Below, piece by piece: positions 22,988 to 59,420 of a DNA stretch of 64,000 nucleotides. Location of the stretch: assembly GCA_022818135.1 (NCBI GenBank), contig JAFMSR010000019.1:1550649-1614648 (forward strand), in the 5' to 3' direction. Numbering within the stretch: position 1 is the stretch's first letter; each line of letters starts with the position of its first letter. The position numbers were made by a program, and so were the translations under genes. The notes under the pieces are model-generated. The model was not told the DNA's origin and did no database searches. It saw nothing but the letters and a program-made list of their open reading frames with translations. This DNA comes from Saxidomus purpurata (taxonomy: Eukaryota > Mollusca > Bivalvia > Venerida > Veneridae).

Positions 22988-23181
22988 TTAGAAGAATTTA
23001 ATATCTTCGCCGCTATCACTTTTAATGCTAGGAATACTTGGGATGCTTGCCTCTCCCTCTAGTACGTTAAAGCTTGGGACACTCGTTATTCCTGTTATCG
23101 GAGCTAGTAGTGAGGAGCCTCTGGGGTCCGCAGCGCTGATCACTCTCATTGTATTTGTAGATCCAGAACCTGGTTTCCAGC
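22988..23181 (-). CDS. PK: pyruvate kinase exon 13B (distal C-terminus)
   Basis: Follows acceptor tttttccag. It completes a split Gly, encodes the effector loop [16 protein letters not shown], and then an extra tail of about 46 residues rich in Ser, Pro and Ile (ending [10 protein letters not shown]) that ordinary animal pyruvate kinases lack. TAA is at 22988-22990. The GWKPGSG loop corresponds to the fructose 1,6-bisphosphate activation loop. The acceptor plus first about 20 nt are repeated about ten times upstream in the intron. Confidence 0.85.
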
Positions 23182-26100: not shown

Positions 26101-29100
26101 TTTACAATGGGATCTTCTGATTTTCAATTTGGGCAAGTCTATTTCTTTAATAGGGGTGTTTTGCAGAATTGAAATCCAAAAGACTTACAGCTTAAATTTT
26201 GATCAGACAACTCTGCTTTGAAGTGTAGCTGTTTGAAAAGGTACGCTTGTATATTTTAACGGACACTAGGCACAAATTGGTTAAGGTTTAAGTGATTACT
26301 GTTAGTAAAGAAAGTTTGGTGTATAATGGCAACTTTGTTGGTGAATGATAGTCCATTTTTAGTTACATAACTTTCTGTTAGCTTAGCTTTAGAACTAAGC
26401 TGAAAATGTCATTTTGTTACGGCAATGCTGATGTACATATAAGTTCAAACTCAAAGTAATGCAGATATGCAGTTACACTGCTGTTCTAAAAGGGTGACTG
26501 ATGTTAACTTTTTATAAAGTTTAAATTTGTTTCAGCTCCTGACATTCATATGTGCTTCTATATTTGTTTCAATCAACTACAGAAAGCACCAAAGTGTAGT
26601 GTAACAATTAACATGACCAAAGCAGAATAACTTTAACTGTTTGTTATTTAGACCAACGTTTTAGCATCTTACAGAGCCTTCATCAAAGATCAACTAGATG
26701 CCCACGTGCAACATGTCGAGCCCGCCATATGTCAAAAGGGCTAACTCCTTACCAAGTAGAGATGGGTCAAAATACACCTAAATATTGGATGTTGTACCAC
26801 AGAAAAGTGGTCTAGATTTTTCTCTACGGCCAGTAATAAAAAAAGTTACAATATAAGCTATTTATAGTAACAACAAAGGGAAGTAATTCTAAAAACCAAG
26901 GGTAGCCCATGGTGGTGAACATTTGTACAAAAGTAACATCAAAACCCTCCATGCATGAAGAAGAAAGCTCAAGACAAAGATATTCTTGACTTTGAACTTT
27001 AACCTCAGGTGTGACCTTGACCTTAGACCTAGGGACCGGTTCTTGCACATGACACTCCGTCTCATGATGGTGAACATTTGTGCCAAGTTAAATTAAAATC
27101 CCTCCATGCATGAAAAAGATATGCTCCGGACAAAGTCATTCTTGAATTTGACCTTTAACCTCCAAGTGTGGCCTTGACCTTAGTCCTAGGGACCTGGTTC
27201 TTGCGCATGACACTCCGTCTAATGATGGTAAACATTTGTGCCAAGTAACATCAAAACCCCTCCATGCATGGAAAAGATATGGTCCGGACAAAATCGGGGG
27301 GGGGGGGGGGGCGGGGGGGGGGCACCCACATACGACCGTGGGGCCGCCACCGCCAAAAGTGACAACTATATCCAGTTCACCGCAAGCGGGCTCAACAAAA
27401 ATGTTTTCAGTAACGTACTTTTTTCTATTTTATAAATGCTACAAAAAAAAAGAAAAGAAATCTGATGAAGGCTTTGAAAATGATGATATAAAAACGTTGA
27501 AATAATGTGTTGTTGTTGAATTTTCCATTTTTATAATACTACCGGTAGTATTATTTATCAGTCATGTAATTTTGTGGTAACATCTCTTTGCAGTGATAAA
27601 CATCAACATGTGAACAAAACCTTTCAGAAATATCATTTTTGCTTAACATAACTTTGCAGTGTTAAACATTTTAATAAAGAAACTTCTATGTGACATAATC
27701 TTTTATTAACGTAATTTTTCAGTTACACTTTAAATTTTCAACTTGACTTTTCATTGATATAACGTTTGGCTTAGGGAACTTTTCAACATTATGTAATATT
27801 ATGTTAATTAACATAACTTTTCAACAATGTAAAGTTTTGTTAATGTCACTTTTAAATTTGTAACATTTTGATAACATAACTTTCAACATATTGAGAACGA
27901 AACTTTTCAATAATATAACATTTTGTTTACGTAACTTTTCAATGATTTAACATACCTGAACATTTCAATGCTGTAACATTTTCTTAACATAACTTTCTGT
28001 TATGTAACATATGTTACTTTACTTTCAATAACATAACATTTTGTTAACATAACTTTTCAATGATATAACATTTTGTTAACGAAACGAAACTGAAACAACT
28101 ATATACTTACATCATGTAATGACACCGTAAATTTTAACCATAATTCCAGTTTTATGCGGTTCAAATTACACTAACACTTATAGTTATGACTTTTTTCATT
28201 GGTATGATATTTCTGTGACTATTCTTTTCACCTATTTGTACTTTTCTATCAACATTTAAGGATTGTTCTCTGTGTTACAAGTAACTTGCACAAGAACAAA
28301 TGCAGACAAACAGACAATTTTAACTAAACTTCTGTTAAGCAATTCCATGCAATCAAAAAAAGAATCATCCATTTTCTGTTTAGATTTTTTTCGTAAATGG
28401 TGATAAAAATGAAAGCACAATGTACATCAATGTACATGTACGTAAAATTACTTTGACAGAAAAGACTGGTTAACAATTTATTCTGAAGAACACATTTTCA
28501 TAGAAAATTAACATGAGCCTTATTGCATTTCAAAGATCTGAATCTCAGACCAAAACACTATCGACACTATTGATTCATTCACTTTTCATATGTGATTTCT
28601 AACGTAACTGTCTATCTTTATCACCTAATTGTTGAATTTGAAATGTTCAAGTCCTTTTCTATCTATAGCATTACGTTTTAATCATTGTAACCCTTAATAA
28701 TTGGGGTCCCTAAAATCGGTCCTTCATCTGTTTCCGGGACATTGATCAACCTCATTGTGTTAGTGTAACCAGATCCGGACTTCCAGCCGGTTACTATGAC
28801 AACTGGATCTCCGGTTTCCATCATTCCACGGGCCCGGCCAACTGCTATGCCTTTGTACAGCCTCTTATCCATGTCCTCGGCCCAAAACTCCAGCTTTGGT
28901 TCTAGACATATTAACGACAGAACATGCAAATCTAACTACTGTACTGCTATGCTAACATACCCTGGTGCTATACACTGGCAGTAAATGATATATACCTAGA
29001 TTTTTAAAATGGAATCTTTTGACTTCCAATTTGGGCAGTCTATTTCTTTTAATAGGGGTGTTTTGCAGAATTGCGACTCAAAAAGGCAAAAAAACTTAGA

Positions 29101-35100: not shown

Positions 35101-38100
35101 CAGGTCGGGACAAATAAAGAAACGCCTTTTCTTGTCCAACGTAAGATATCAACTAAAAGCTATTTTAAGATGAGTAAAACATATTCATTAGTATCTATTT
35201 TAATAATTCTAGAAACTTAAAGCAAAATGAACTAGTTGCTATAGCAACTGCATGCACTAAAACAAAATGGCAGCTTCAAAAAGGAACACTGTAAATGCAA
35301 TAATGTTCATGCGTTGTTTATTTCACAGTTTGATTGTTTACAAGTTAATCACAACTTTTTTTGATTTGGAGAAGTATACTATCAAGATTAATCTAAGTTA
35401 CGGAAATTTAGCAAAACTTTTGACCTTATGATGTCTCATTCCTTCAAATACCCCCCACCCCAACCTCTGATGACTTTTACAGTATCATAATAATTATCTC
35501 GCAGTGAATTATCAGTAATGATTAGACATTTTAAATTTTGAGGGTTGACTGACAATCTTCCTGAGTGAAGCTTTTTTACAAAGCGGGAGATCTTAATCCG
35601 ATAGCGAACATAAAATGTAACACAAGCAGAAAAATATGGCGGGTGAAATTTAAAACTGAATAAAATTTTCCATTCTTTCATTCAAGTTACCACTATCTTG
35701 CATAAAACCCACGAAATAGATGCATAAATGTTAGATCTAACAGAGTAAGTGTTAGTGTTAGTAACAGCATCGCTATTTTTCTGTTGCCCAATGAAGCTCT
35801 AGCTCACATCTACAGCCTGACAGACTCTTCCTAAACCCTCACCCTGCTAATATTGAGACATGTACTTATTGGTCTTTCACTGTGTTCTAAGTGTGTTTCC
35901 AGTCTCCCAGCCGACAAGAACATTTTACTGCCGATCCCAATCGTTTTTATGAGCAAATGATCAAATAGATCAATTTTAAAGTGTTTTCGAGCAAAACCGG
36001 CAAAATGGAAAGGAACAAATTAAAAAAAAAATAACCTGCAGACTGACCTTAATTTTTTATTTTTGGCAAAGTGACCAGAAACTCCCTTCATACCCTTATA
36101 TGGTGTTCACTAAAATATTTACTCAATTAATATCAAACAGAGCTGGTCATGTAATGACTTCACAGGTCACAAAAGCAGAATGACTGTGAATAGGGTAATT
36201 TTCGTCTGACAAAATTTTTTCAATAACTTATTTGTGAATTTTGAATTCCCGAAAGGAGGAATCTCTAATAGTAATTCTATGTGAAATGAATCTTTTGCAA
36301 GATTTTTCAAATGGGAAATTCGAGAAAGTGAAATAATCGCAGATTTTACCCAATTTACAGTTACAGGGTAAAGTAACAGTTACCACAGAAATCATACTAA
36401 GCATATACTTCACAGTGCAAAAACATGTCCATAAGTCAATAATTGTTAGCCGTCAAAGGACTTGAGTAGCAGTTAAAAAAACGTTGATAATACCCAGGTA
36501 TTTCAATGTAATTCGGATATTTGTGACTGTGTATATATAAATTTTAATGGTTTAAAATATTTTTAATGATGGCGGCGACTGATAAAATCATTACACGTCA
36601 AAATCACTAAAATGTCAAACCTATTCTAATGCACAGTGCTCTTAATTGCCGTAATTACAGATTATTTCATTTACAGAACTACATAATACGCTATACAAGG
36701 ATCACAAATATGACAGATATAACCAATCAGAATTGACTTTACAACAGTGGTGCGTTAGAAATACAAATTTTCAATTCACTCCCCAACACTTGACTTATGG
36801 ATTAGTACAAGATGTAGCTAGCAGAACTGAAAAGCTCTCTTATAATCTCAAAAGCTGAAATAAAAAGTACTGACTACAAGTGCAAAACAGTAATGAAAAC
36901 ATTTGAGCAGACGACACAAATCAGTCCTTCACTGCAACAAAGTTGTATAACTCTTAACGAAATAGGATAGGAGTTACATCGCTGTTGCATCGGAGGGACA
37001 AAATGACGTAAAAGGTATAAGAACTTACCGACATAATGTATGGGGAAAACCCCTCTGTATAAGTGACCTTGCCTCGCTGTTTGAGCATTCCTGGTAATGG
37101 CCAAAACCGGACATCTTGGTCGATATGCCGAGATTAAATATGCAGATCTGGAAAAAGCAGGTATTTAGTATTTCAGATGACCATTCACTCTCAAAATGAA
37201 AATATTGAGGGCTGACATCAAAACTGTTGTAAAACTGTTGTAAGTCCTTAATTTCATTAAGTTACTGCAGTTTGGCAGTCAACCCTTGTTATTCTATTAT
37301 TTCAAAATCTTTCAATGCATGACAAAGTCACAGTCCAGACACAAATGTGTGCATTTATACAGGATTTCATTACCTTCAAACTTTAAGTGTGACTTTAACC
37401 TTTGAGGTAGGGACGTTGGTCTTGCACACGACACGTCTTGAATGTGCTGAATATTTGTGCCAAGTTATTTCAAAATCCTTCAAGGCATGACAGAGTTACA
37501 GCCCGGACACAGAAAAATGTAAGGGCAGACACATGGACGGACGGACGGACTGTGCAATTTTAATTTGCCACCCTTTGGGGGCATAAAAAGGATGTTTCTG
37601 TAACACAAGCAACAATATAGTGACAAGACAAAAGGGTAATAAAATCATTACAGAAAAACTTTCTCAATCAAACTGGAGATGGCCAAGATGAAACAAGAGG
37701 GCCAAGATGGCCCTATATCGCTCACCTGACAATATGTGACCAAACTTGAACTAGAAACTATATATCACCGTTAAACTCCGTATAACGGGGGGGGGGGGGG
37801 GGGGGGGGGGGGTGGGGGGGGGGGAACTAGAAACTATTGTCAAAAAAGCATGTCCCACACAAAACAAATGTTCGAAAACGTAAACACACAACATTGCAGG
37901 TAGTTAATGACCTTTGCCTTGCGGTACAAGGCAAAGTTAAAACATTAGGCTTGACCGATTTTCGGTCCGTTATCACAAGCTGACCTCTTGGGTTGTTAAA
38001 TAATCACTTCTAAATCGTGGAATTAATATTTGTTTGCATCTTTGATTGCAGGCTTACCTGAACTTAAATAAATCAATTACAAAACTGTTATTGTTTGTTT

Positions 38101-41100
38101 TAACAAAAAAGTACTTTCACTTTAGCCCTCATTTTCGGACAAATGGATGTACTTTCGTTTTCAATACAAATATTACGTAAGAATTTCTTATACATTAATC
38201 GGAACAATTTATTTTAATAGAAATATTTCTACAATTTCCTCAAGATTCTAAATCATGATGCGTGCTAAACTAATAAGCTTTAATTTGGTTAGATGAGGGG
38301 GGGGGAAGATAGAATGAAAAATGACAGCCTCTATTGCATACAAATGATTTTCCTACACAAACCAAATTTTGACCTAGTTTTTGGCCCTAGAACAGGCTAG
38401 AAGACTCATGTTTGAACTTGACCTAGATTTCATCAAGGCAATCATACTGACCAAGTTTCATGAATGTCCAATGAAAAATGCAACCTCTATAGCATACACA
38501 AGGTTTTTCTATGATTTGACCCCATGACCTAGTTTTTGACCCCAGATGACCCATGTTTGATCTCAACCTGGATTTCATCAAGTCAATCATACTGACCAAG
38601 TTTCATGAAGGTCCAATGAAAAATGCAACCTCTATTCCATACACAAGGTTTTTCTATCATCTGACCCCATGACCTACTTTTTCACCCCAGGTGAACTATA
38701 TTTGAACTCAACCTAGATTTCATCAAGGCAATCATACTGACCAAGTTTCATGAAGATCCAGTGAAAAATGCAGCCTCTATTGCATACACAAGGTAAAGTG
38801 TGGACAGACAATGGACACCAGGCAATCACAATAGCTCACCTTTGAGCACTTCGTAATGGGGCTAGCTAGAGTTATGGTTCTTAATATTCACTGCACTCCC
38901 TCTTATTGCCTCTTATCAATGTGTGAATAAACATCTCAAACTCATAGTTTTACATAGTACATTTTGTACTTGTCCATGCACAGTTTTTGAGTTATGCTTC
39001 AGACAAGCATATTACAAAAAGGGAGATAATTCAAAAACGGGGAAAGCTAGAAAGCAGAATTTTCGCAATCAGACAATGCTGTCTAGACTGAATTGATTTT
39101 TGATGATGCGGAAGCTTCAATGTCACCTTCAGAAAAATCATTCATTCTGTAAGTTGGGTAATCTTTCGTGCAACGCACATTTCGCGATTATGAGCAGACA
39201 ACTGATTCGCAAATTGAAAGGAGAATTCAGAGTGAGTGTTATAGTAAATCTATGTGAAATTAATCTTTTGCATGAATTTTTAATTAGCAAAGTGGGAAAT
39301 TTTGCAAGAGTAGCCAAAATTAAATCATCGTGAAAATAACCAAGTTTACAGTATCGACTTACCACAAATCTTGCTGCAATTCATTGCGATAGAGATGCAA
39401 GAATGGTCTGAACGGCAGACGTTTAACCAGACAAAAATGATGTTTATACTCTTAAACAAAAGATGTACTGGTTCCTCCAGGAAATATCTAGTAAAGTATT
39501 TTAGGTATTTGTTAAATGTAATGATGTTATCAGGACCCTGTTTACACCCACGATAAACACTCCTGCATGTCTTTTACCACATGGCTATCAATAAGAACAT
39601 TTTATGGTAAAAAGAGTAGAAAACTTCGAGGCACCTTCCAGTAGTTGTTATGACAATTATAGCTGCCGCCATGCACTTAAAGGATGCCTCTACAGCCGCT
39701 ACGGCAACCGTATGTGAGGGATCAGTTGGGGTCGGGGTCTCTCGTCGCAAATCCTCAAACAGTTGACTGTGGAAAACAGCTGACTCGGCTTCTCTGCAGA
39801 TCTGTGGGGAGACAAAAATAGTTGCATGAGAAGAGATTTTGATGAGAACTGCCATAAACTAGAGCTATCAATAAAGCTGATTCATCCCTCATCAATGTGC
39901 CATGGCACTAGGAATGGTGAGTATAAGTTTATAAGGGGACACAATTTGAAATATAACCCCAGCAGAGTTATTCACCTTGAGTTTGCAAATGGTACAATGG
40001 TTATTATGGTATGAATTGAAAGTCTGAAAATAATGCCACAAACACTTGGCAAGAGGTCAATAAGGGCCAGTAACACTCTACTGGACTGACTTGACTGTTC
40101 TGAGCAAGTTTTGTAAAATTTATTTGGACTTTTATCAAGGAAGAGCTGGCAGGTCACTGTCACCTTTACCCACTGACCTCAAAAACAGTAGGGATCGTGT
40201 ACTCAGTGAGCCCAATCATTCTATGAAGTTTGAAGACTGCTGTTGATAGTGAGAACTCAAGATATTAAGGAATTGATTTTCAGGTAACTGTGACCTTGAA
40301 ATTTTGTCCCACTGGCCCCAAAATAATAGAGATCCTCTACAGGGTGCAAACAACCTTCTGAGCAAGTTTCGTGGAAATTTGTGACCTGAAGAGTTTTAAC
40401 AAGTTTTTGGACAGACAGACAAATCATGGCAGAAGCTTTTCTGGACTTTGTCCAGTAGAGCTAAAAATAGTCACTTTAGTTGGCCTCATAAGAAAAACCA
40501 GTTGTGGACAATGTATGAATGAGAACTGTTGCAACCAAAAGAAGGATCTAACCTAAAACTTACTGGTGCATGTATGACTTGAGCAGCATTTTCTGAAAAT
40601 TAATACCCTTAGGTAAATCAAGACTTGAGCATTTTGAATTTTAAACTGAACCCATGAAACTACAGAGACTTTGAACATTTTATGAGAACGCCAGTTTCAA
40701 ATTCAAACCCCGGTGCCTTAAAGCTAGTAAATGAACAGTAGAACCATGATTAAACCATGATAGATGTATATCATGAGGGAAGGCATTTACCATTATTGGG
40801 TACATTTATTAGCCAATTATCTCCAATAAAACTAAAATTCTACGAAACTTCTTCAAAATTTACAGACTTTCAAGAATTCAATCTGGGCCCTACAAGTCAC
40901 ACTGACTGTGACAAGAGAATTTACCTACAGAAAAGCAAAGTAGGGAAAAAACATTGTGTCCTTTCACTCACAGAATGCATGATTTTCAAAGCCTCCAGTG
41001 GGTAGTCTCCCTTGGCAGTCTCGCCGGACAACATAACACAGTCAGCACCATCTAAAACAGCATTAGCTACATCACTCGTTTCTGCACGGGTTGGACGGGG

Positions 41101-44100
41101 TTTCTTCACCATACTTTCTAACATCTGAAAGAAAATCAAGTTAAGTTCATGTGTACTCAGTTTACGTTTCCTAAAAAGTAATCGGAATTCACTCGGAATT
41201 TTGTTGTGTGGTATATTCAAAACAAAAGGGCCAAGATGGCCCTATATTGCTACCTGGCTACCATTGGCTATACAAGGTCATACATAGCAGAAAGAGTAAA
41301 TTTTGACCTGGGGGTCATGCTTTGAACATTTTTGATAGAGGTCAACTCTGTAAAAACAAGTGACCCCCCAAGCCAAGGTCAATTTTGACACATGGGCTAT
41401 AATTTGAATAATTTTGGAAGAGGTCCACTAGGTTATGCCACATGCCAAATATCTAAGCTTTAGGCCTTCCTGTTCTTGATAAGAAGAGTTTTAAAGTTTT
41501 TCCTTTCTGTTGCCATGGCAACCAGAGTTCTGCATGGAATGAAATTATTTGAACAACTATGAGTGGGCTTCATGCATGGAACATCCCTGCCAAGTTTCAT
41601 CATCATCAGCCTAGTGGTTTCAGTGGAGACATCGTTTGAAGGAAAATGTTAATGGTCATGTACAACATACAACGTACGCCGGACTGTACGCATTCTGACA
41701 CTCAGTTGAGCTAACAAAAGTCCAAGTAAAAGACATACATCAGTGGTCACTTTACTAGTTAGCCATTACACAGTGTAATACTCTTTTTCTATATTGTGTA
41801 AGTTTTTCTTGTGGCTAATAACACCCGTTCAAAGAATATTTGATTAATCACAGGTGGGGAATTTAACTTACCAATCATTGACTTGGGATGGACTGGATGT
41901 ACCAGACTGCCATCCGTGAGAAACTGCCAACTTTCTCACATAAAGAGTAATGTTGGCAGTCAGTTGTTTACAAATTTAAAGTCTGTGATCTTGACGACCC
42001 AATCACAGAATGTAGCACGAGGAACCAGCTGGTTGAGGTGAGTTTGTAAGATATAGCAAAATATGTGCTAAAAGTGCCAGAAACTAAGACCATAACAGGT
42101 AGTCAGTCCTATAACTGAATGAAATGCCTTATAAATATAGTCATATATCAGTCTGGTAAAAGACAGAGCTTTATCAACTATCTATCTAAATTACGACTGT
42201 TTAATAACTTCCTCTCATTTGTCATATGCTTAGACAGATTTCCTGCAGTATCTGAGATAATGACATTAATCATGAAAGTGTGATAAGTAATAGAGCATTT
42301 GGTGCTAATATTCTATATTGGGCTAGTGGGTAGGTGCTTAGTTTTGTTTAGTTTATACTAATTTATTTTAGCTTGATTGTGAAGAAAGCTTGTAGCTTAT
42401 TGAGTCTGGAAAAACCAGTACTGGTGCCATATGAGGAGGTAAGGTCGTCATCCAGTGGGACTCAAACCTGCAACCTCTGGGTTGAGCCACAGGCACATTA
42501 ACCTCTTCACCATGGACCCCCTTGGGATAGGAGCTTTGACATACAACCATTGTAAAGGTTTGATATGATACATGTATTGGTATTTTGCAAAATCTTAGCT
42601 GCTTATGCCAAATTTATAAATTTTGTGTAAATTTTTTTGGACCAAATTTTTGGCAAATTCTGAATAAATTAATTGCCTAACAAGTTATATATTACTCCAG
42701 ACCTGCATTTTCCTCACTGACCTTGACATTGAAGTAATTCAAGGAATGTCCTTGACCTACCTGTGTAGCGCAAATGGCACTTTTACCCGCTCTGTTACAT
42801 CTACCAATCATCATTTTCTGTGCTAGGAAAACTTTCTCTGGCGGAATTTCAATACCTAAATCACCACGGGCAACCATGACACCATCAGTCACATGTAGAA
42901 TCTCATCAAATCTGAAAACATGAACAAGTTTCTTCAAAGTTCATTTTAAATTGTCAACAAATTTGTTTTCGGATAAACCTCTTTTAAAATCAACATTCAG
43001 GATGACACACTTCCTAATTATTTTTCAAAGCTCCCATTTTTGGAGAGCCAACTACAGAACTGTCTTCTTTCCTTCTATTTCTATATAAACTTCTAGCGAT
43101 TCCATGCTCCGCAATCATACGTACATCAGATCGCGAACATTAAAACTGCTTTTGCAAATTTAAAACATTGATAATTATGAAATAATATCCGTTTCAGCGG
43201 TGTTCATTGTCTAATAAACAATGATTTGGAGTTCTGATGTGCAGTAATTAACCACGATGATTGGACGCCCCAGTAGTTTATAATTGTGCATCAGAATGAC
43301 AAAGAGTTGTTATTTAGGCAACAACAACGCTAAAAAGGTTCCTATTTTGATTCTAACATGACCAGATATTGCAAAAGATGAATAAATGTAAAGCGTTATT
43401 TTCTAGGCAGATATTTATTTAATGTCATGCAGCACAACATGAAGTCACTTTTGACTGCATATCGACCCGCGTGTTTTTCATGGCAGAATAAAACATAATT
43501 TTTCTACTCTTTGTATATAGAGGCGAAATCACGAGTCATGTTAAAATGACTGATACAGAGTGTTAATTTCAAAATCTCGCAAAAGGTTAATTTCACGTAG
43601 AGTTCTCCTTCACGAATTTCACATTCATGAATAAGTCTGTCTGTTCACAAATCACAAAAATTTCCCAATGACAGTAAAGCACTGAAGAACCCATTGAACA
43701 AGACTTATTTTGCTCACCCTACTTCTTTAAAGGGGCACTCCCTACATCTAGCAGATTATATTCTCGAAACAGATAATGTGTTCAATGAACGTAAAATGAT
43801 AAATAATTACAATTTCAAAGAACAACATATGGCTAAAAATGCCTCATATTACTGCATAAAATCAATATAGAGGATTTAATAATTATGTAATAAATCCCAT
43901 CCACCCATTTATTGTACAACAACAACTTTACATAGATTATTGAATGGTTAACAGTACTGCAAGATATTTTTAAAATGCTGATTGTATCCATAATGACTGG
44001 AATGCATAGCTTAAACTTTTAGGTTCAGTTATAATACTTCCGAATATTCTAATTTTTTATGTCTTTGAGGTTACTTAGTTTGACATCAGTTATCGGGTAT

Positions 44101-47100
44101 GTCCCTTTAACTATCTACTTGCACACAGCTCTTCAGCTGAAACAGTGCATGCAAATCCCCCCCCCCCCCCCCTCAAAAAAAAAACAAGAAACATGGCAAT
44201 GCCACGAAACCAGGTTTTCAAAAATGTTGTTCTGATTCAAGTACAAAGTAGACATGAAAAATATATCATATCTTTTTAAATACCTCCAAAGATGATAGAC
44301 CTTTGACTGCCAAATCAAGTTAAAACATGAAACAGGATTTTCAATGTAAGTCACTGTGACCTTGACCTTGGAGCCAGCCATGGGAACATGCGTTCTGCCG
44401 CATCTTATGTGGTAAACATTTGTCTGAAGTTTCATCAAAATTCTTCAAAGGGTTGAAGAGTTACAGAGCGGACAGGATTTTCAAGTTAAGTCACTGTGAC
44501 CTTGACCTTGGAGCCAGCCATGGGAACATGCGTTCTGCACGCCATCTTGATGGGGTAGGGGACTTTGTCTGAAGTTTCATCAAAATTCTTCAAAGGGTTG
44601 AAGAGTACAGAGCGGACAGGATTTTCAAGTTAATGTCACTGTGACCTTGACCTTGGAGCCAGCCATGCGGAACATGCGTCTGCACGTCATCTTGATGTGG
44701 TAAACATTTGTCTGAAGTTTCATCAAAATTCTTCAAAGGGTTGAAGAGTTACAGAGCGGACAGGATTTTCAAGTTAATGTCACTGGACCTTGACCTTGGA
44801 GCCAGCCATGCGGAACAATGCGTTCTGCACGCATCTTGAGGGTAAACATTTGTCTGAAGTTTCATCAAAATCTTCAAAGGGTTGAAGAGTTACAGAGCGG
44901 ACACACTTCGTTTGACGCCCGCCCATCCGCCCATCCGCCCATCCGCCCATCCGCCCATCCGCCCATCCGCCCGCCATACCCCAATCTAATAACCAGGATT
45001 TTCAAAATTGAAAACCTGGTTAAAAACAGAACAGACAAACAATATTTCAAAGAAGTCAAGTTTAGTTTAATTGAATTTTACAAGTATCTAAAATGTAGTT
45101 TTTTCTCTCTTTAAAGTTTGACACTACCATTCACTGCTCAAAGGGGATGGCCACCAAGCTTTTACTGACTGACTAGAACAAACTGTGAAGATTCGCAGAT
45201 TGATCATGATCTACACTGCTCACAAAGGCCAAAACATTTGCTTCCTAAAAGGGGTAAAGATTAAATACACTAGAGAAAGTAAATCAGCTTATTTCTGGAG
45301 CAAACCAAATATTTTGTGCTTTCATCTCTAAAGGATTAACTGAAGTGTGATCGAAGACAAAAACCCCTACATTGACTAGTACTCACTTTTTTACACCCTC
45401 ATGGTTTTCTATTTTAGAGATTATTTTTATATGCCGTCCTTTCTCGCCAAGAATTTGTCTGATATGTCGGACACCATCTGCTGATCGGATGAATGAAGCA
45501 AATACCATATCCACCTGGAAATGAAACAGACAACCCTGCGTACACATAGAGGAATAAATAAAATTAAAATTCTGGGCTTGACACAAATGGTGGTATGCTG
45601 GTCTGTGACCGCCGACCTTTTGAAAAAGTCTTCATCAAGGGAAAATAAGAGAGTATCAAACCCAGACATTACATTATTGCTTTAAGAGAACATTACAGAA
45701 AGTAAGTTGTTGTAAGTGACTGCAATTTCAGCGGGAATCATCTGTAATCCTAAATAGGTGAATGATTTTCCAAAACTACCACAACATTTTTTTAAAAATT
45801 TTGTTCATATGAATCTATTTCAGTCTGGATGTGAAGGAAATTTCCTGAGCTTATTGCACTGCTTTCGAACACTCCAGATGTTTTAAATATTCCCCTTACC
45901 ACTGTTAAATACTGGACTCGGGATTGTTCCGCTAAAAATACCCTTTTCTTCAACAACTTACAACATAGCCGCTGCTTCATAATTATAATCGTACAAACTA
46001 CTACACAAGCGGGCAAAGATGGCCTTACACTGCTCACCTGAGTCTACAGAGAACATAATTTTCATTCACGCTCAGGTGAGCGAAAAATACAAAACTACTT
46101 ACCCCGTGTTCTACGCCAAATTTGAGATCCTGGATGTCTTTCTCTGAGACTGCAGGCAAATCTACAGCGATACCGGGCAGATTGCAGCCCTTCTTACTGC
46201 CAAGGTCACCTCCGTTCTCGATATCGCACAAAAGGTAATCCTCGCCTGAAAAGTAAAAGAGAAGCTTATTTCACATTTTCTGCTGCTTTTTTTGTGTATC
46301 AATAAAACAGTGACTGCCTTGGTAAGTCAAAATTTACACCCGTTACATCTGTTTTCATTGTACTTATTTGATTAAGCTGTCTAAACAACCAGTTTTCTTA
46401 ACTAACTTATTAAAGACCTAAAAAAACTAGAGCTATCACTAAATGTGATTAATACCCCCAAAAGGATTGCTTTATAAACTGAAGAAGTTTGCCGCAACAT
46501 AATACCGCAAAAAATAAAAAGAGATATTGTTGTTAGCAGCCAAATTGGGCATGACCATTGTCTTAAGGATTGACCAACAGTTTTTAAAAATCTCCAAACA
46601 GGAAAAGTAACAAAGGGCAATAACCCTGTAATTAGCAAGATGGGTGGTTACTGTGCACGCACTCCTCTCACTGTGCTTGACCATTGTATGAAGTTGTATT
46701 GAATACCAACTATAAGTATGCAAGTTGTCTCATAAGGAAAGTACAAAGGGTAAAACAATGAGCAAGAGGGGTATGGTTCCTGTGATGACTTCCTCCAGGG
46801 AATGTAATCAAACATATGAGGTTGTACTGAATTCCAACAAGTAGCTGTCAAGTTAGCTGACAAGGAAAAACAAAGGGCAATAACTCAGTAAATACTCAAG
46901 ATAGAGTTATAGTTCTTGCCTATAAAACAATGACTTCCTCTGACAGTGCTTGATAATGGCATGCAAGTTGTACTATTCCAACTAGTAATTTCTAAGTTAG
47001 GCGGACAAGGAAGATCAAGAAACATTTTTATCAGGGAGTTATCGTTCTGCTCTTGCTTATGGTGACCATTAAGTGTTGCGGTCATGTATGGTCACAAGAA

Positions 47101-50100
47101 AAGTAACAAAGGGCAATAACTCATACTCAAGAGGTTATATTACACTGCACTTCCTCTGAGTGTGCTTGATCATTGTCTCAAATTGGTTAAGTCCAACCAA
47201 GTTGGTTTCGGACAAGGAAATGAAAAAGGGATAATCTTTAATTAGTCTGGAGTTATGGTTCTAGGTCATAAAGAAGGTATTGAATTCCAATAATAGTCAA
47301 GATCCACAAGAATCAAGGGCCATAACACTGTAATTAGCAAGATGGAGTTATAGTTCTTTGCACTGCACTGCCCCTCAATGTTTTGGGACCATTGTATGGT
47401 AAACAAGTATTCAAACTTTCAAATTAATATCTCAAGACAGTTCAGTCAGAAAGTGGACCGACCAACACCGGTGACTCAAAACCCCCTAAACTCGGTTTGG
47501 GGGTATAAAGATTCTATAGTTCCGACTACAAAACGGCAATCTGGCAACATATACAGAATAAACAGTTTAGCAAACAAAGTGCCATAAATTTTCATTAATC
47601 AGAGAATTACCTAGTTGCAATGTCTATAAATTAATACAAAATAACTTCCAGGGGAGGTAATCAAAATATGGAAAACAAGAGGGCAAGATTAACACCTTGG
47701 TACAAGTCCACTTGCCTAAAGGAAGATCTCTAAAAGGTTATAGGCCAAATAGGTTGTCTATACGCCTTTTAACACATATTCCCCACGGGCAAGGTCAATT
47801 TTCACCCCAGGGGATCTTGAAAAGGGCTACTAAGTCAATGCTACATGCCAAAAACTAAGCTCTGAGCCTTGTGGTTTCAGAGAAAAATTTTAAACTTTTC
47901 CTATTAGCCTATTTAAATAAGTGTCCCGTGATGGGTAAACAAGTATGCCGGGGTAATAGTTTGAAACAATCTTTACCACTCCAATGGTATATGCCAAATA
48001 TCTAAGTCAGGGTGGTTCAACGAAGAAATTTTAAAGTTCCTAAATAGCCTATGCAAAAATAAGTTCCCTGGGGTATTTAAAAAAACGGGGCCATAATTTC
48101 AATTGGCAAAGGTCCACTAGACAAGAGTATGTAAATTCTAAGGTCCAGGCTGTGGATGGAGACTTTTAAAGTTTTTCCTATGTATGGCTAGCAAAAACTA
48201 AGGGCCCACGGGGCAATTTTCCCGGGGGGCATAAGTTTGAACAATCTTTACCACTAGCAATGCTACATGAAATAAAGTAGGCCTGTGGTTTCAGAGGAGA
48301 AGATTTTTAAAGATTTTCCTATTTGTTGCATGGAAGGAACATTCCTGCATAGTTTTATCAACATTGGCCTAGAGGTTTCAGAGGAGATGTCATTTGAATC
48401 AAAATGTTGACGGACGACGGACAATCATCGATCAGAAAAGCTCACCCTGGCATAGCCAGGTGAGCTAAAAAAATGTAGAAAGGGCAACAACTCACCTACT
48501 TCCTTAACAATTACAGAAATAAGTCCATCGTCAATAAACATTTTATCACCAATTTTCATGATTTTCACTATGTTTTTATAGTCGACCCATATACAGTCCA
48601 CCGTTCCTTTCTCGTAGTACTCATCGTCGATTGTTATCTTGATCGTTTTGCCCGTCTCAAGTTTAATCTCGGCGCTGGCTCCCTAAAATAACACAGAAAC
48701 CCATGTGCAAGTTGAACCCGTGTTAGTGATCATCTGAACCCGGTTGTTCGAAACTTTAACTAGCAGTTAAGCTAACTGCTGATCAACTATTGATTGAACA
48801 AAATGATTCTAGGTTGAATAGTTTGATTTTGCTTTGGTGAGTTTTTGGTCCTCATTTTATTGTGCCAGGCAAGCACTTGTTTTAGTAATAGTCTTTAAAA
48901 CCCCAGAAATATAACCCTACAATTTTACAGACTATTAGCTTAACAGCCGGTTAAAATTCCAAACAACCAGGTCCTTAACTAAGCAGCCATCTGCCTTATG
49001 CAGAATGTAATCAAGTTGTTGTTGTAGGAGTTTAAAGCCTGTTCCAACAGTATTTACAGGCGGGTAGTTTACCTAACCCATCGTTCCTGGGAAGAACCGG
49101 TACTAGACTCCTAGCCTCTGTAAGAAACTGCCAACTTTCTCAAATAAAGAGAAATTGCCGGTAGCAGTACTTGAAAGTAAGCCATTCATTAATACTAAAT
49201 ACATCTTATCAATGCAACCACCTGTCTGAAGAGGCCACTTTTCATTGGGTGACTGTTTAATACTGGATGAAAAAGGTTTTTATTGCATGGATACCATCAC
49301 TAGACCAATGAAAACTGTCCTAAACAATCTGCCAAGTAATAATCAAAAGTGGTAACTTAAAGTAAGGACTATTTAATATATTGTGTATTTAACACCAAAA
49401 TTTTTGACTGAGATATATCAGTACTGGCCATTATCATTGGTGCCACCAAAGGGATAAAACTACTAATAACTGCTTAGATTTCCCTAGAAGTATAAAAGTA
49501 CTAAATATGTAAATGCAATGATTGCTAAATTTTCCCAAGAGGTATAACACAATTAAATCTGTATATGCAGACTGCTAAATTTTCCTTAGAAGTATAACAC
49601 TACTAAATCAGTATAATTATTCAGAGGTATAACACTACTAAATTTGTATAGGCAATGATTGCTAGGTTTTCCAAGAGGTATAACACAACTAAATCTGTAT
49701 ATACAGACTGCTAGGTTTTTCTTAGAGGTATAACACTACCAAATATGTGTATGCAGACAGTTGATTTTTCCATTAGAGGTATAACAGTACTAAATCTGCA
49801 TATGTAATGACTGCTAAGTTCTCCCAGAGATATAACAGTACTAAATCAACATATGCAGATTGTCAAGTTTCCCCCAGAGGAATAACACCACTAAATCTGC
49901 ATATACTGTGACTGTTCAGTTTTCCCCACAGGTATAACACTACTAAGTTTGTTTGTGCTTCATATATAACTGTAAGTCTGGTTACAAATAGCATCTGCAT
50001 CACTAAATACCGCAGAAAGAGATGACATAATCTAGATTCCCATGCAATATCCTAAGAAACCTGATGTTCTGCTGCATTTTCTGAATCAACTTCCCTTTGA

Positions 50101-53100
50101 CATCAGCAGGAAATGATGATAAACGGATTTTATACTGTAGTAGGAATTCTCTGCGGACGCCAAGTTTAATTTTTTTTCTTTGAACTGACAGATACTTTGT
50201 GTATACAGCAATAAACACTCTGATATTCTAACTGAATTTATTTCAACACAATTGTATTTTAGATAACTGAAGAATGTGAATTTACTGTATCTATATTGTA
50301 TATAATGTTCAAAGGGGTGTTTGACATGCTGCAATGAAAGCATTTAGGCAACCTTTAAAGAAACTTTTGTTTCCCTCTCCTGTATGACCAGGAAATAGCA
50401 GCTGCCCATGACGAAAAACTTTCACTGCCAAAATTTTTTATTATTTTTTTATTGTTTCAGTCACTTACTTGAGCAACTGGCTTCAATTTCATGAAAATAC
50501 TTAAGTAATTACTCAGTAACATGCTCAACTTATTTCAACACCTATCAGCCCCTTGCATGTTTATTCATTTAAAGAATTCAAGTTTGTCAGAATCTTGTTT
50601 ACCCTTTTATTACATTTACATACCCTTGTTAGTATTTGTGCAGGAAATGCGGTTTTATTGCAAGTAACCTATATAAGTAAATTCTTAAAACTTCTCAAGT
50701 TGTACTCAAAAGAATTTTTCACTATATCTGACTTGCATTTAGCATTATACAACATCTTTTTATTCTAACATGTTAATTTCATTATAAAAATAGACTATCA
50801 TAAAAAAATGACAATAAAAAATATCCTTATTTTTAGTGACAATTAGACTTTAAGATAACTTACTAAGCTGAGCAATTACTTGAGCATTTTCATAAAATTG
50901 GGGCCTGGTCTTTTTACAGCAGAGTCTTAAAGGTCCACTACTAAGCGAAAATTAAGTGACAGTTATTTAAATGGCAAGTACATTACCTTTTGCAAGACAC
51001 TAAATAATGAAGAATGGCATGTTGTAATTTACAAAAAGTGTTTGGAACTCGCAGAATAGTATGTGTATTATGTTGAAATCTCAGTGAATCGACAAAATGA
51101 CTACCCAGGTCTTTTTAACTTTCTTCATAATGCATAGAAAAATAATTGTACATGTACTGTGATTTATTAACAATTTCTACATACCAACTTTAATTTTGTA
51201 TCAAAAATAACTTATTTATGTGCTTTTTAAAACATATATGAATTTTCACTTTCTTTAGTATTGGACCTTTAAGGGCATTAGCAGGGGAAACAATAATTAT
51301 CAAAATCTGTAAGCTACTTCCTAAGCCTCTGTGCCCCTTTGCCCCTATTTGGCTGCAAATTAGCCCTTACCCTACTAAATCTCTAAAATGGACTTGTCCA
51401 ACTTTCAATTTGGGGCAGAACCATTAATTGTTCAAAGGGGTGCACACTGAAACTTTACTGGCTGTAACAGCAAACAGTGTAGATCATGATCAGATTGTAC
51501 ATATCTGCATGTTGATAATGATCTGCACTGTTTGTGTAAGGTAAGAGTTAAAGGCCCATTAACATCTTAGATACTATAAAGCTAAAGGTCCATCAACACT
51601 TTAAATGCTCATAATAAAGTTAAAGGCCCATTTACACCTTAAATGCTCGTATATAGAGTAATATACAGACAGAATAATGATAGAACTGAGCTCTATTGGG
51701 TCTAAATCAATGTTGACGTTTACCTAAAGTTCTATCATATTGTTGTTGCTCCTTCACCAAAAAGCGTTGTAAGACATTCTTTCTTATTTTTTCAATATCA
51801 TTGAAAACTTACTGTGCAGTAAGAATAGCATTTACAGTGAGTTTAAAAGCAATTTTAGGAATGTTAATATGAGCTATAAATAGATTTACATTCAAAGTGC
51901 TAATGGGCCTTTAAAAAAAAAGTGGCATAAATGTTAGTATAATATGTTTCTACAAACTGTTTTCATCCGCTACAGATCCCAAAATTCAGAGTAACTGTAC
52001 CCTTTGAAAAAAATACCTCTGTTCCTTTTTCTACTTCAAATATTGCACGTCCGCCTCACCGCCAATTCCATTTTTTTCTGGTGTGGCAAAAATTAATTTA
52101 TTTTCTGATAATCATTCCAGCTTTTTCTACAATTTTGAACCTCAAAAATTAGATTTTTTGGAATGAAAATTAGATGGGGAGATTGCCTTTAATGCCATTA
52201 GAGAAATACAAGGCAAATCGGGTACGAGAATAAAGGCCTAAAAGTAACTTCACTTCATAAAGTTGTATTTTGTATTAACAGCAACAGTAGTCCCTACATT
52301 CCAATGCCTTGGATCCATCTAAATTTGTTCCTTATATTCGGAGTATGTTATATCCATATAACATTTTAAAATGAAACAGCGAAGACAGAAAGATTATGAA
52401 CACAAAAATTTGTTCCTTATTATAACTGGAATTTCACTATATCCGAAGTCATTATAAACAGCGTTTACTGCTCTGCTATACCTCTAACTGCATTAAATAT
52501 AAGCTCAAATGACATTGGTTTTTTTTCTTCAAATTTAAGCTCAAATCACACTGTTTTTTTTCTTCAAATTTAAGCTCAAATGACATGTTTTTTTTCTTCA
52601 AATTTAAGCTCAAATCACTTTTTTTTTCAAATATAAGCTCAAATCACATTGGTTTTTTTTCAAATATAAGCTCAAATCACATTTCCCCCCCAAATATAAG
52701 CTCAAATCACATTTTTTTTTGTTTTTTCAAATATAAGCTGAAATCACATTGGTTTTTTCCCAAATATAAGCTCAAATCACATTTTTTTTTCAAATATAAG
52801 CTCAAATCACATTGGTTTTTTTTTCAGAATGTACAGTCACTCAGCAAAGGTTAAGAAGCACAATGTAAGCAAGATGTTAATGATAAAACTCAAAAGAAAA
52901 TATGACAAACCCCTGCCAGCAGTCCAGTCCTTATTTCCGGACCTTTGGTATCCAGCGCAATCGCCACAGGTCTCGGATGACTAAATTGGGAAACCGCCTC
53001 CCGTATATTCTCAATTGTTCCGGCATGGTACTGTTCAAATATACAAAATGTAAAAAAGTAATATATCAACGAACCCCAGCGTTAAGTCCTGTACGGATTT

Positions 53101-56100
53101 CCGGACCCTTTGTATCCAATGCTATAGCACATGTGGGCCTTGGCTCACTGAACTGTTGAATGGCGTTCCGAACATTTCGAATTGTCTGTTCATGGTACTA
53201 AAATGTAAATAACTTCATTTTGACCTATTAAATTTATTAGTGATTTAACTAGCCAAAACAAACAAGGGTTATCAAGCAGGGAACCATTTCTAAATTAATA
53301 TAAAGCATGTAACTAAAATCCATTCTTGAATTACAACCCAGGAACAAAATAAAGCTGCAGGTAATTAAAAGTAATTTCTAAATCAATTTAAAGCAGGGAA
53401 CCAAAAGTCATACATTTCAAGCAGGGAACTAAAAAACAATTTCTAATTCAAATTCAATGAAGTAACCAAAATCCCATTCCTAAATCAATGGCAAGCTGGA
53501 AATCAAAAGTCAATCTAAATTAATTTCATGCAGGGAACCAAAAATCAGTCTAAATTAATTTCATGTAGGGAACCAACCATATCAAGCAGGAAACAAAAGT
53601 CATTTCATAATCAAACATAATTCGAAGCTGGGAACCAGACTGGTGTTCAGCAAGGCTAAAATGTTTTGCCAACACAGACGTGTACTTTTGGCCTAATCAC
53701 AGAACAGTGACAAGAACACACACTAGGCACCAAAGGTTTAAAGCTCAAATACAAACAATTAAGGCCAAAACATAAAACTACCAGATAATTTTTTTCTTTG
53801 TGACATAACAGAAAAGTGAGAGTGTGTTAGCAGGTTGGAAAATTAGTGCCTCATGAATATTAATGACCTCACAGTATCACCTACATACCGGTACCTGGTC
53901 TAACACAGTATCACCTATATACTGGTACCCGGTCTATCACCTGCTTCATGTTCACTCCACGGTATATTCACTGATGATTATTCTCAACTCAACTCAATGC
54001 AGAGAATCAATGTCACTTACAGACGTCAGACTAACTTTACAAAAAATATACACAACTACACATCATGCCCGGATTTCAATTCAGTTAGGCCTAAAAAAAT
54101 CAATAGTCTGTTTCCTGTAACCCTACCCACCCTCCTTTTTTAACCCTGACCCAAATTTTTTTATGAGCCCGAAAAAAATTAACATATAGAAAATTTATAT
54201 TTTCATGAATTTTGGTGTTGTCTGCGTTCAAAAAAGGGTTTTTATGGACTTCTTCCATAAATATTACATCAAAGACCTAGTTAAAGCTGAAAACTGTTGT
54301 GGGTACCCATAAGATTTCAAGTTCATATTAAAAAAAAAAAAAAAAAATCCCTACCTACTGACCCATTTTTTTTCAACATGTTACAGGAAACACACACATT
54401 CTTTTTAAGGCTTACTTGAAAATTGTACAATCTGTTCATGCCACAACTATTTTCAGTAATTAATATATTATATATAAATGCTATATATACAATCAAATGC
54501 ATATAGAATACAGTTAAAGGGCAGCAACTCTGTAGGAACTGAACCCTATGCAAGTTTAAATATATATCAGGCATATCTACTTTTTGCTTATCATCATTTA
54601 TATACACAAATGTAGAACTTGAGTCTAAAAATATTTTTAAATCAAGGGCAACAACTCTGTTGAAACTGAAGCAATGAAATTGTGTTAAGATGTATATTTT
54701 TATGGTGACCATGCAGTGTGCCAAATTTGATTACATAAATCATTTATTCATTTTATAAAAACAAGAATTATTTGTAAAATATAACTACACATCTAGAATT
54801 CAAAATTTGAGCAACGTAAAGGTCAAGTTAACCTTGACCTTTGATAAAATTATCAGGATTTAAATAGGGGCCATCCTCTTGTTGAGAGCAACCAGTATCT
54901 TGGGCTATAAAAAGCCTCATTTCTGCAATGTGAGGGGTCAGCTGAAGGGCCAAAGCTGGTTACATAATGGAACAATTAACTTTACACAGTTTCGGCAATT
55001 TTTCAATATAGGACCTTGATACTTATCAGCTAAAAGAATAGTGTGTGTACACGTAGAACATTTTGCCAAAGGAATTTAATTCCAGTCGACTATTATGGTG
55101 CCTCTGTAAGTTTTTAGCATAGAAACCTTAATTTCAACAGCTTTTACACGACCTTAATACTTTGGGAATATTGAATATTTTGGCTTATTTTACATCTACC
55201 CGAAATTTACCTCGTATGTTCCGTGTGAAAAATTGAGTCTTGCAATATTCATGCCTTGAATGATCATCTTCTGTAAGGTCTTTACTTCTCTGCATGCTGG
55301 ACCTGCAACAAGATCCACAAAATGCATTCAGCCAATCAAAGGACTAAGTTTTCAAACAACTACCTACTGTGGTCCGATTGGTTTCAAATCTGTCCAATCA
55401 AGGTCAGAGATTTCAGACAAACCATGATTTCACTCTAAAATGAATATGTTCATTGTTCATTTTGGACAGTACAATAACTGTTGATTTTTTAACATGGTGT
55501 TTGCTGAAAATCCAACTTCTGTCTAACTGATAATTGTTCCACATCTAGCCAATCAAAGGACTAAGTTTTCAGACAACTAGCTACTGTTGTCTGATTGGCT
55601 AATGTTTCAAATCTGACCAATCAGAGGGCTGAGATTTCAGTCAACTGCCAACTGATGTTTGACTGGCTTATATTCAATACCTGACCAATCAAAGAACTGA
55701 GATTTCAGACAACTGCCAATTGACGTCTGATTGGCTAATGTTTGAAAACTGAGATTTCAAACAAGAGTACCCATTAATTCTGATAGGCTGATGTTTAAAA
55801 TCTGAGAATTTAGATGGTTAAGGCTTGAAATATTTAATTCCTATCACTTTCAAAAAGTTAGGACTTCTCTAAACTTTATAACTGAAATAAAAATGGCTAC
55901 AGTAAAATTGCTTCTTGTCAAAATTTTCACGGAAACAATATACCTATTGTGCATATGATTCCACTCATACGAATTGTATTGGGCTCCGAGTCGATGTCCA
56001 GCTTGCATTTGTGCTCCAGCGGGCTATTTGCGTACGCGGCATGAAGCTGTTGTTTCTGGACATAGTACTCCCCCTCATGTTCCATACCCTTGAGGTCAAA

Positions 56101-58749: not shown

Positions 58750-59420
58750 CTCCAGTCCAGACTCAGTGGTAAAGTGGTACGTAGAGTCATCGACTTAAAA
58801 GCAAAGTAACCTCTCATAGAGCCGGGTCAGCATTTTGGAGCCTTGCTTCATGGACCATGTTTTAGGCTGGCAGTTTCTTACAGAGGATAGGGTTCTAGTA
58901 CTGGTTCTTCCTAGAAACAATGGTTACAGGAAACTAGCCTCTGTCTTCGAAACAATAGTTACAGGAAACTAGCCTCCAGTTCTTCCTGGAAACAATGGTT
59001 ACAGGAAACTAGCCTGTGGTTATTCCTGCAAACAATGGTCTCAGGAAACCAGCCTCTGGTTCTTCCTGAAACCAATGGTCACAGGAAACTAGCCTCCGGT
59101 TCTTCCTGGAAACAATGGTCACAGGAAACTAGCCTCCGGTTCTTCCTGGAAACAACGGTCTCAGGAAACTAGCCTCCGGTTCTTCCTGGAACCAACGGTC
59201 ACAGGTAACTAGCCTCCGGTTCTTCCTGGAACCAACGGTCACAGGTAACTAGCCTCCGGTTCTTCCTGGAACCAACGGTCACAGGTAACTAGCCTCCGGT
59301 TCTTCCTGGAACCAACGGTCACAGGTAACTAGCCTCCGGTTCTTCCTGGAACCAACGGTCACAGGGAACTAGCCTCCGGTTCTTCCTGGAATCAACGGTT
59401 ACAGGAAACTAGCCTCCGCT
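58750..59420 (+). repeat. SINE fragment with 40 bp minisatellite tail
   Basis: SINE-like head 'cagtggtaaagtggtacgta' and 'agagtcatcgacttaaaag', then from about 58900 about thirteen copies of a 40 bp unit 'ctagcctccggttcttcctg' + 'gaaccaacggtcacaggtaa'. Copies at 59160-59380 are nearly identical, indicating recent expansion. Confidence 0.85.

What the first reader, a model, noticed from the sequence alone, without database searches (positions are those of the whole stretch)
52911..53197. Tandem mutually exclusive exons 4a/4b in pyruvate kinase
Two adjacent exons encode alternative versions of the same 40/41-residue segment ([10 protein letters not shown]... and [10 protein letters not shown]..., both ending [13 protein letters not shown]). 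Both are phase 0 and have intact splice sites and catalytic residues. Only 44 nt lie between them, so splicing 4a to 4b should be sterically blocked. The classical vertebrate PKM switch uses a different segment (exons 9/10, the C-domain interface). Here the swap would change a helix next to the barrel entrance before the cation and nucleotide contacts. I do not know of a description of this arrangement.
Basis: partly seen in the sequence, partly recalled or inferred. Interest (0 to 1): 0.88.

Follow-up and report, generated by a model that had tools for sequence, protein, structure and literature searches.

The report
Swappable exon in clam pyruvate kinase
A clam gene for the sugar-burning enzyme pyruvate kinase carries two intact versions of one internal exon side by side, so the animal can probably build two forms of the enzyme that may respond differently to amino acids such as alanine; it has not been shown here that both forms are made.

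Summary
Two adjacent homologous exons (53075-53197, 41 aa; 52911-53030, 40 aa), phase 0 with AG/GT ends and 44 nt between them, encode the segment of human PKM 83-126 in a bivalve pyruvate kinase gene (92% identical to Mercenaria). Not chance or an assembly duplicate: each matches Pfam PK; DNA identity is 65% (78 of 120), synonymous sites near saturation, only 10 of 40 residues differ; 0 of 26,510 accepted neutral simulations were that conserved. The 40-aa form is the one in all 48 mollusc rows inspected; 4a's arginine-to-strand spacing is in none of 248 homologues, though 90% clustering may hide isoforms. Mutual exclusion is likely by spacing alone: inclusion of both, or neither, stays in frame. 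Catalytic residues agree in both. Differences lie in one helix and the loop holding the R106 equivalent, the amino-acid-pocket anchor, where the 41-aa copy has one extra residue. I propose a switch of amino-acid (alanine) sensitivity. The gene also has alternative terminal exons, a type already annotated in other bivalves. No RNA was available; use of the 41-aa exon is unproven. New variant of a known kind.

The parts
53075..53197 (-). Exon 4a, 123 nt, 41 aa [41 protein letters not shown], phase 0
   Evidence: Pfam PK 31.6 bits for 53066-53197
52911..53030 (-). Exon 4b, 120 nt, 40 aa [40 protein letters not shown], phase 0; the usual mollusc form
   Evidence: Pfam PK 35 bits for 52890-53081
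53031..53074 (-). 44-nt intron between 4a and 4b; retention gives VR and then a stop codon
55944..56100 (-). Exon 2 (contains a possible start Met, [10 protein letters not shown]); exon 1 not located
55211..55302 (-). Exon 3, inferred donor for 4a or 4b
48496..48682 (-). Exon 5, inferred acceptor for 4a or 4b
46103..46245 (-). Exon 6
45387..45514 (-). Exon 7
42761..42911 (-). Exon 8
40972..41124 (-). Exon 9
39635..39801 (-). Exon 10, counterpart of vertebrate PKM exons 9/10 (recalled); single copy in the window
37029..37147 (-). Exon 11, holds the H464, F470 and P471 equivalents of the amino-acid pocket
28678..28901 (-). Terminal exon 12a, coding part (C-terminus ...PIIKGYND, stop)
24837..24950 (-). 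Exon 12b, alternative to the first half of 12a
22988..23181 (-). Terminal exon 12c, coding part (C-terminus ...GEDIKFF, stop)

Best explanation
Exons 4a and 4b are a functional pair of tandem duplicated exons in a bivalve pyruvate kinase gene, used one at a time. Shown from sequence: both are intact, in phase, and conserved as protein while their synonymous sites are close to saturation. Inferred: exon 3 is spliced to 4a or to 4b and then to exon 5. 4a cannot easily be joined to 4b because the 44 nt between them leave less than 50 nt from the 4a donor to any 4b branch point in that intron. Equal, weak donors would let a tissue or stress factor choose. Inferred function: both forms are active K+-dependent kinases, because cation, hinge and catalytic residues are unchanged, but they differ in the helix and loop carrying the equivalent of PKM R106, which anchors free amino acids in the regulatory pocket. 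In 4a one extra residue between that arginine and the strand ending in LDTKG shifts it by one position, so the 4a enzyme should bind alanine and other amino acids differently, probably more weakly. Together with two alternative C-terminal ends one gene could make four enzymes.
For: Intact phase-0 exons with AG/GT ends. 4a against 4b: 42 of 120 nt differ, by codon position 11, 6 and 25; 10 of 40 aligned residues differ; of 30 codons for the same residue 17 differ in DNA. Nei-Gojobori dS about 3 (near saturation, rough), dN 0.27. If 4a had been unconstrained while 4b was constrained, 0 of 26,510 accepted simulations (of 60,000 run) had 10 or fewer changes; the minimum was 14. With its extra residue left out, 4a keeps 14 of 14 invariant and 5 of 5 nearly invariant columns that a 41-protein alignment has in this segment. 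44-nt spacing against 588 nt or more elsewhere. Pocket residues R43, N70, H464, F470 and P471 are present in the clam protein; N44 is M. The R106 register is R in 46 and K in 2 of 48 rows taken as mollusc, and P in 4a; no one of 248 proteins has RP at the 4a spacing. All 48 mollusc rows have the 4b length. AlphaFold of the Mercenaria protein (634 aa, pTM 0.79) places this arginine (residue 191) between a helix (170-185) and a strand (194-198). R106A weakens amino-acid binding 2-4 fold (PMC10004559, section 16 read); citrullination of R106 lowers sensitivity to Trp, Ala and Phe (PMC7979715, passages).
Against: No RNA evidence for either splice form. No second species with 4a was found. Inclusion of both exons, or of neither, is in frame, so nothing but spacing enforces exclusion. 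4a lies on a much longer protein branch than 4b (0.33 against 0.0025) in an unresolved tree. R106A in PKM2 kept the same pattern of activation and inhibition, so a shift of this residue may matter little. R106 is not universal: R stands at this register in 157 and P in 16 of the 244 proteins with the motif, the 16 all outside the 48 mollusc rows, and the total length of 4a occurs in 7 of 248, all outside those rows, with the arginine, where there is one, kept in register. No unusual RNA structure spans the pair (z -0.49).
Confidence: 0.55

Rival explanations
1. A true mutually exclusive pair, but the helix change acts elsewhere: it tunes subunit contacts, stability or a binding partner, with no effect on amino-acid regulation.
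For: 7 of the 10 substitutions fall in the helix (equivalents of 85, 86, 89, 91, 93, 95, 96), including, from 4b to 4a, E to R at 89 and E to N at 93. The arginine itself is kept one residue away in 4a. PKM2 R106A keeps its response pattern.
Against: The only length change falls between the anchoring arginine and the conserved strand, a spacing (RP plus three residues) seen in none of 248 homologues.
Confidence: 0.3
2. 4a is a rarely used or vestigial exon: splicing nearly always chooses 4b, and 4a persists with little function.
For: The 4b length is the ordinary mollusc one (48 of 48 rows), no 4a relative was found, 4a sits on a long branch, and both donors are weak.
Against: Protein conservation with near-saturated synonymous divergence excludes a long unconstrained period for 4a: 23% of the accepted neutral runs stayed free of stops and none reached the observed conservation.
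Confidence: 0.12
3. Both exons are included together in some transcripts, giving an enzyme with a repeated 41-residue segment.
For: Double inclusion is in frame without a stop, and very short introns can occasionally be spliced (recalled).
Against: The 44-nt intron is under the 50-nt steric limit used in PMC5740500, and the product would repeat a barrel helix and strand. Of 248 proteins one has the DTKGPE motif twice (P0001, a sturgeon record marked UNVERIFIED_CONTAM), and its copies are 298 residues apart, not adjacent.
Confidence: 0.03

Closest known systems
Vertebrate PKM exons 9/10 (M1/M2 switch)
   Same: Tandem alternative exons in a pyruvate kinase gene that change regulation, not catalysis (recalled); PKM is among the human tandem duplicated exon genes discussed in PMC9741552 (passage).
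   Different: Other segment: here PKM 83-126 (helix, amino-acid anchor, cation strand). The clam counterpart of exons 9/10 (e10) is single in the window. In PKM both exons are 167 nt, so double inclusion breaks the frame (recalled); here it stays in frame.
coq-2 exons 6a/6e (rhodoquinone switch) in nematodes, annelids and molluscs
   Same: Mutually exclusive homologous exons in a metabolic enzyme, present in molluscs and tied to anaerobic life (PMC7434440, abstract and passages).
   Different: Unrelated enzyme; there the switch changes substrate choice, and splicing was examined by RNA-seq.
Human mutually exclusive exon clusters with steric interference
   Same: Short distance between donor and branch point (<50), reported as potential for 57 clusters, 9% (PMC5740500, passage).
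   Different: Human set; the word 'invertebrate' does not occur in the main text.
Alternative C-terminal ends of bivalve pyruvate kinase in public records
   Same: Mytilus trossulus (X4 and X2) and Saccostrea echinata (X5 and X1) isoforms end in YND or KFF, as exons 12a and 12b/c do here.
   Different: The exon-4 segment is the same in both listed isoforms of each species.

Membership tests
Pyruvate kinase (animal PKM-like) | Barrel and C-terminal domain homology along the full length | tested here: met
   7991 candidates scored (capped), all E <= 0.001; highest identity listed 92%, Mercenaria; PDB PKM E 2e-237; Pfam PF00224 and PF02887 on single exons (exon 12b alone had no match)
Pyruvate kinase (animal PKM-like) | Cation, hinge and catalytic residues kept in both versions | tested here: met
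   R73, N75, S77, D113, T114, E118, R120, K270, E272, D296, T328 equivalents present with 4a and with 4b (functional roles recalled)
Tandem duplicated mutually exclusive exons | Adjacent homologous exons of similar length and same phase with own splice sites | tested here: met
   123 and 120 nt, phase 0, AG/GT, 30 of 40 residues identical
Tandem duplicated mutually exclusive exons | Both copies under protein-level selection | tested here: met
   (simulation and pairwise dN/dS; no codon model on a tree)
Tandem duplicated mutually exclusive exons | A device that blocks joint inclusion | tested here: inconclusive
   44-nt intron fits steric block; the frame does not block it; no RNA structure beyond shuffles
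Tandem duplicated mutually exclusive exons | Transcripts with one and only one of the two exons | not testable with these tools
   No RNA reads; the search for homologous proteins lists only 90%-cluster representatives
PKM M1/M2 exon switch | Duplication of the exon for about residues 380-435 | tested here: not met
   e10 has no second copy in the window
Amino-acid-regulated pyruvate kinase | Pocket residues R43, N70, R106, H464, P471 | tested here: met
   All present with 4b; with 4a the arginine is shifted one residue from the strand; the neighbouring N44 is M in the clam. Regulation itself not tested.

The most novel reading that the evidence does not exclude
One clam pyruvate kinase gene carries two independent regulatory swaps: exon 4a/4b sets sensitivity to free amino acids, and terminal exons 12a or 12b/c rebuild the region around the fructose-bisphosphate site. 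That gives four enzymes. The 4a form would be an alanine-tolerant pyruvate kinase that keeps glycolysis running when alanine builds up without oxygen.
Probability: 0.22. Interest if true: 0.85.

Novelty: new variant of a known kind. Interest (0 to 1): 0.6.

Why it matters
Bivalves live through hypoxia and make alanine as an end product (PMC4018674 and PMC6472746, passages). A spliced swap at the amino-acid anchor of pyruvate kinase would be a simple genetic handle on that tolerance. It would also show that evolution placed a PKM-like splice switch at a second, different regulatory site of the same enzyme. It turns the question of what distinguishes forms of mollusc pyruvate kinase into a junction count and a two-protein assay.

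Tried and rejected
Chance or assembly duplicate: rejected, since the copies are only 65% identical in DNA (78 of 120) and 75% in protein (30 of 40), each with its own splice sites. Third copy of exon 4 in the window: none. Other duplicated exons: only the last exon (12a against 12b/12c) gave matches that I take as real; exon 9 had one weak match elsewhere (E 3e-4, see Noticed in passing); e10 had none. A 4a-like form elsewhere: a whole-length search (7991 scored, a cap; 120 listed), a search restricted to the 4a segment (9 matches among 11 candidates) and a fragment search (2614 matches among 2723 candidates, 120 listed) gave none among the 248 sequences inspected (4 of the 248 lack the motif used). 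The unlisted matches were not seen. The database is clustered at 90%, so isoforms that differ only in exon 4 can be hidden; the absence is weak evidence. An exon-4 tree was unresolved (24 rows, 40 of 41 columns kept), so the age of the duplication is not fixed. Local RNA structure: none beyond shuffles; no Rfam match at gathering score. My first neutral simulations were too simple: one (all 42 changes on one copy) gave none as conserved, the other (half of them) did not exclude neutrality (18%). The version matched on third-position divergence replaced them; it kept 26,510 of 60,000 runs.

Novelty searches, all in an open-access library: 15 of 47 listed; 20 of 38 listed. In the listings, and in the passages I read, I saw no alternative exon 4 in pyruvate kinase; the Daphnia pyruvate kinase event is skipping of exon 9 (PMC7318467, passages). 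PMC9013439 holds none of the terms looked for, PMC8659336 led to coq-2 (passages), and a Manila clam splicing paper does not mention pyruvate (PMC9803972, passage). Subscription literature is not covered.

Full report
WHAT IS THERE. The window holds most of a pyruvate kinase gene on the minus strand, from about 56.1 kb down to 23.0 kb. Fourteen exons were placed (2, 3, 4a, 4b, 5 to 11, 12a, 12b, 12c); all 14 follow AG, and the 12 that are not terminal precede GT. The first exon was not located. The spliced protein is 92% identical to pyruvate kinase of the venerid clam Mercenaria mercenaria, the highest identity among the 120 listed, and matches PKM structures over most of its length. The source is therefore very probably a bivalve close to Veneridae.

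THE PAIR. Between exon 3 and exon 5 lie two homologous exons: 4a (53075-53197) and 4b (52911-53030), with 44 nt between them. The joins around them are phase 0. Of 40 aligned residues 30 are identical; 4a has one residue more. Of those 30 codons 17 differ in DNA. Nei-Gojobori counts give dS about 3, close to saturation and therefore rough, and dN 0.27. In simulations where 4a drifts freely and 4b keeps its protein, matched for third-position divergence, none of 26,510 accepted runs was as conserved as observed. With its extra residue left out, 4a keeps every invariant and nearly invariant column that 41 homologues show in this segment: 14 of 14 and 5 of 5. So 4a has been read as protein for a long time. 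That is indirect evidence; no RNA was available.

WHICH COPY IS WHICH. The 4b length is the one molluscs have: 48 of 48 rows taken as mollusc, 10 of them without a species name. A 4a-like segment was not seen in any of 248 proteins inspected from three searches; each long search listed only its best 120. The total length of 4a does occur in 7 of the 248, none in the mollusc set, but none of them has 4a's spacing of RP plus three residues before the strand. Because only representatives of 90% clusters are listed, a 4a isoform in Mercenaria or another clam could be hidden: the Mercenaria cluster alone stands for 13 sequences. A tree of exon 4 is unresolved, with 4a on a long branch.

HOW SPLICING PROBABLY WORKS. 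Both donors are weak and alike (GGG|GTTCGT and GGG|GTTTGT, 5 of 9 consensus positions; the other 10 internal donors 6 to 8). The 44-nt spacing is under the 50-nt donor-to-branch-point limit that PMC5740500 used as a sign of potential steric interference (passage); the other introns placed have 588 nt or more. Retention of the 44 nt would give an early stop. Joint inclusion and joint skipping are both in frame, so, unlike PKM exons 9/10 (recalled), frame-based decay cannot clear mistakes. No unusual RNA structure was found across the pair. A 33-nt tandem repeat array lies downstream of 4b (52495-52822); whether it matters is unknown.

WHAT THE SWAP CHANGES. Exon 4 covers PKM 83-126. The strand [12 protein letters not shown] with the cation and hinge residues is identical in both copies. 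Of the 10 substitutions 7 fall in the preceding helix; the extra residue falls in the loop before the strand. In the AlphaFold model of the Mercenaria protein these are helix 170-185 and strand 194-198, with the R106 equivalent (191) between them. R106 of PKM2 anchors the carboxylate of free amino acids. R106A weakens binding 2-4 fold but keeps the pattern of response (PMC10004559, passages and section 16). Citrullination of R106 lowers sensitivity to Trp, Ala and Phe (PMC7979715, passages). The other pocket residues R43, N70, H464, F470 and P471 are conserved in the clam; N44 is not (M). At the R106 register 46 of 48 mollusc rows have R and 2 have K; in 4a the extra residue puts proline there and moves arginine one place out. 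Across all sequences the position is less conserved: R in 157 and P in 16 of 244, which weakens the argument. The proposal that the swap tunes alanine sensitivity is therefore reasoned, not shown. It is attractive because alanine is a hypoxic end product in molluscs.

A SECOND ALTERNATIVE REGION. Exon 12a (28678-28901, ending YND) and exons 12b plus 12c (24837-24950 and 22988-23181, ending KFF) encode alternative versions of the last part of the enzyme, with the W482, R489, G518 and G520 equivalents in each. Both types occur as named isoforms in Mytilus trossulus and Saccostrea echinata. Of 48 rows taken as mollusc 6 end in YND, 30 in KFF or RFF and 12 otherwise. This switch is thus already in public records, whereas the exon-4 pair was not seen there. 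The counterpart of vertebrate PKM exons 9/10 is single in the window.

COMPARISON WITH THE KNOWN. It looks like tandem duplicated exon pairs such as PKM 9/10 and coq-2 6a/6e, the latter also present in molluscs and linked to anaerobic metabolism (PMC7434440, abstract and passages). It is not the PKM 9/10 switch, because that exon is not duplicated here. In the open-access library I saw no description of an exon-4 alternative in pyruvate kinase (listings).

VERDICT. Real, selected and probably functional; a new variant of a known kind. The main gap is RNA. My confidence that both forms are made is about 0.8; that amino-acid regulation is what differs, about 0.4.

Noticed in passing
22988-28901 (exons 12a, 12b, 12c): Two alternative 3' ends of the same gene; both C-terminal types (YND and KFF) are found as named isoforms in two other bivalves.
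   Followed up: partly
23165-23589: The intron before exon 12c holds an array of about 47-nt repeats that resemble the 12c acceptor and first codons (TTTTCCAGGCTGGAAACCAGG...), that is, a row of decoy-like 3' splice sites directly upstream of the real one.
   Followed up: no
52495-52824: 33-nt tandem repeat array (about 10 copies) starting less than 100 nt downstream of exon 4b in the transcript.
   Followed up: no
58903-59418: 40-nt minisatellite, 13 copies, upstream of exon 2.
   Followed up: no
11692-11808 (+ strand): Weak match (45% over 29 aa, E 3e-4) to the exon 9 peptide on the other strand, with a stop codon in the longer match; chance or a decayed fragment.
   Followed up: no
P0001 (Acipenser sinensis record): A sturgeon protein marked UNVERIFIED_CONTAM carries the exon-4 segment twice, 298 residues apart; probably a faulty gene model.
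   Followed up: no
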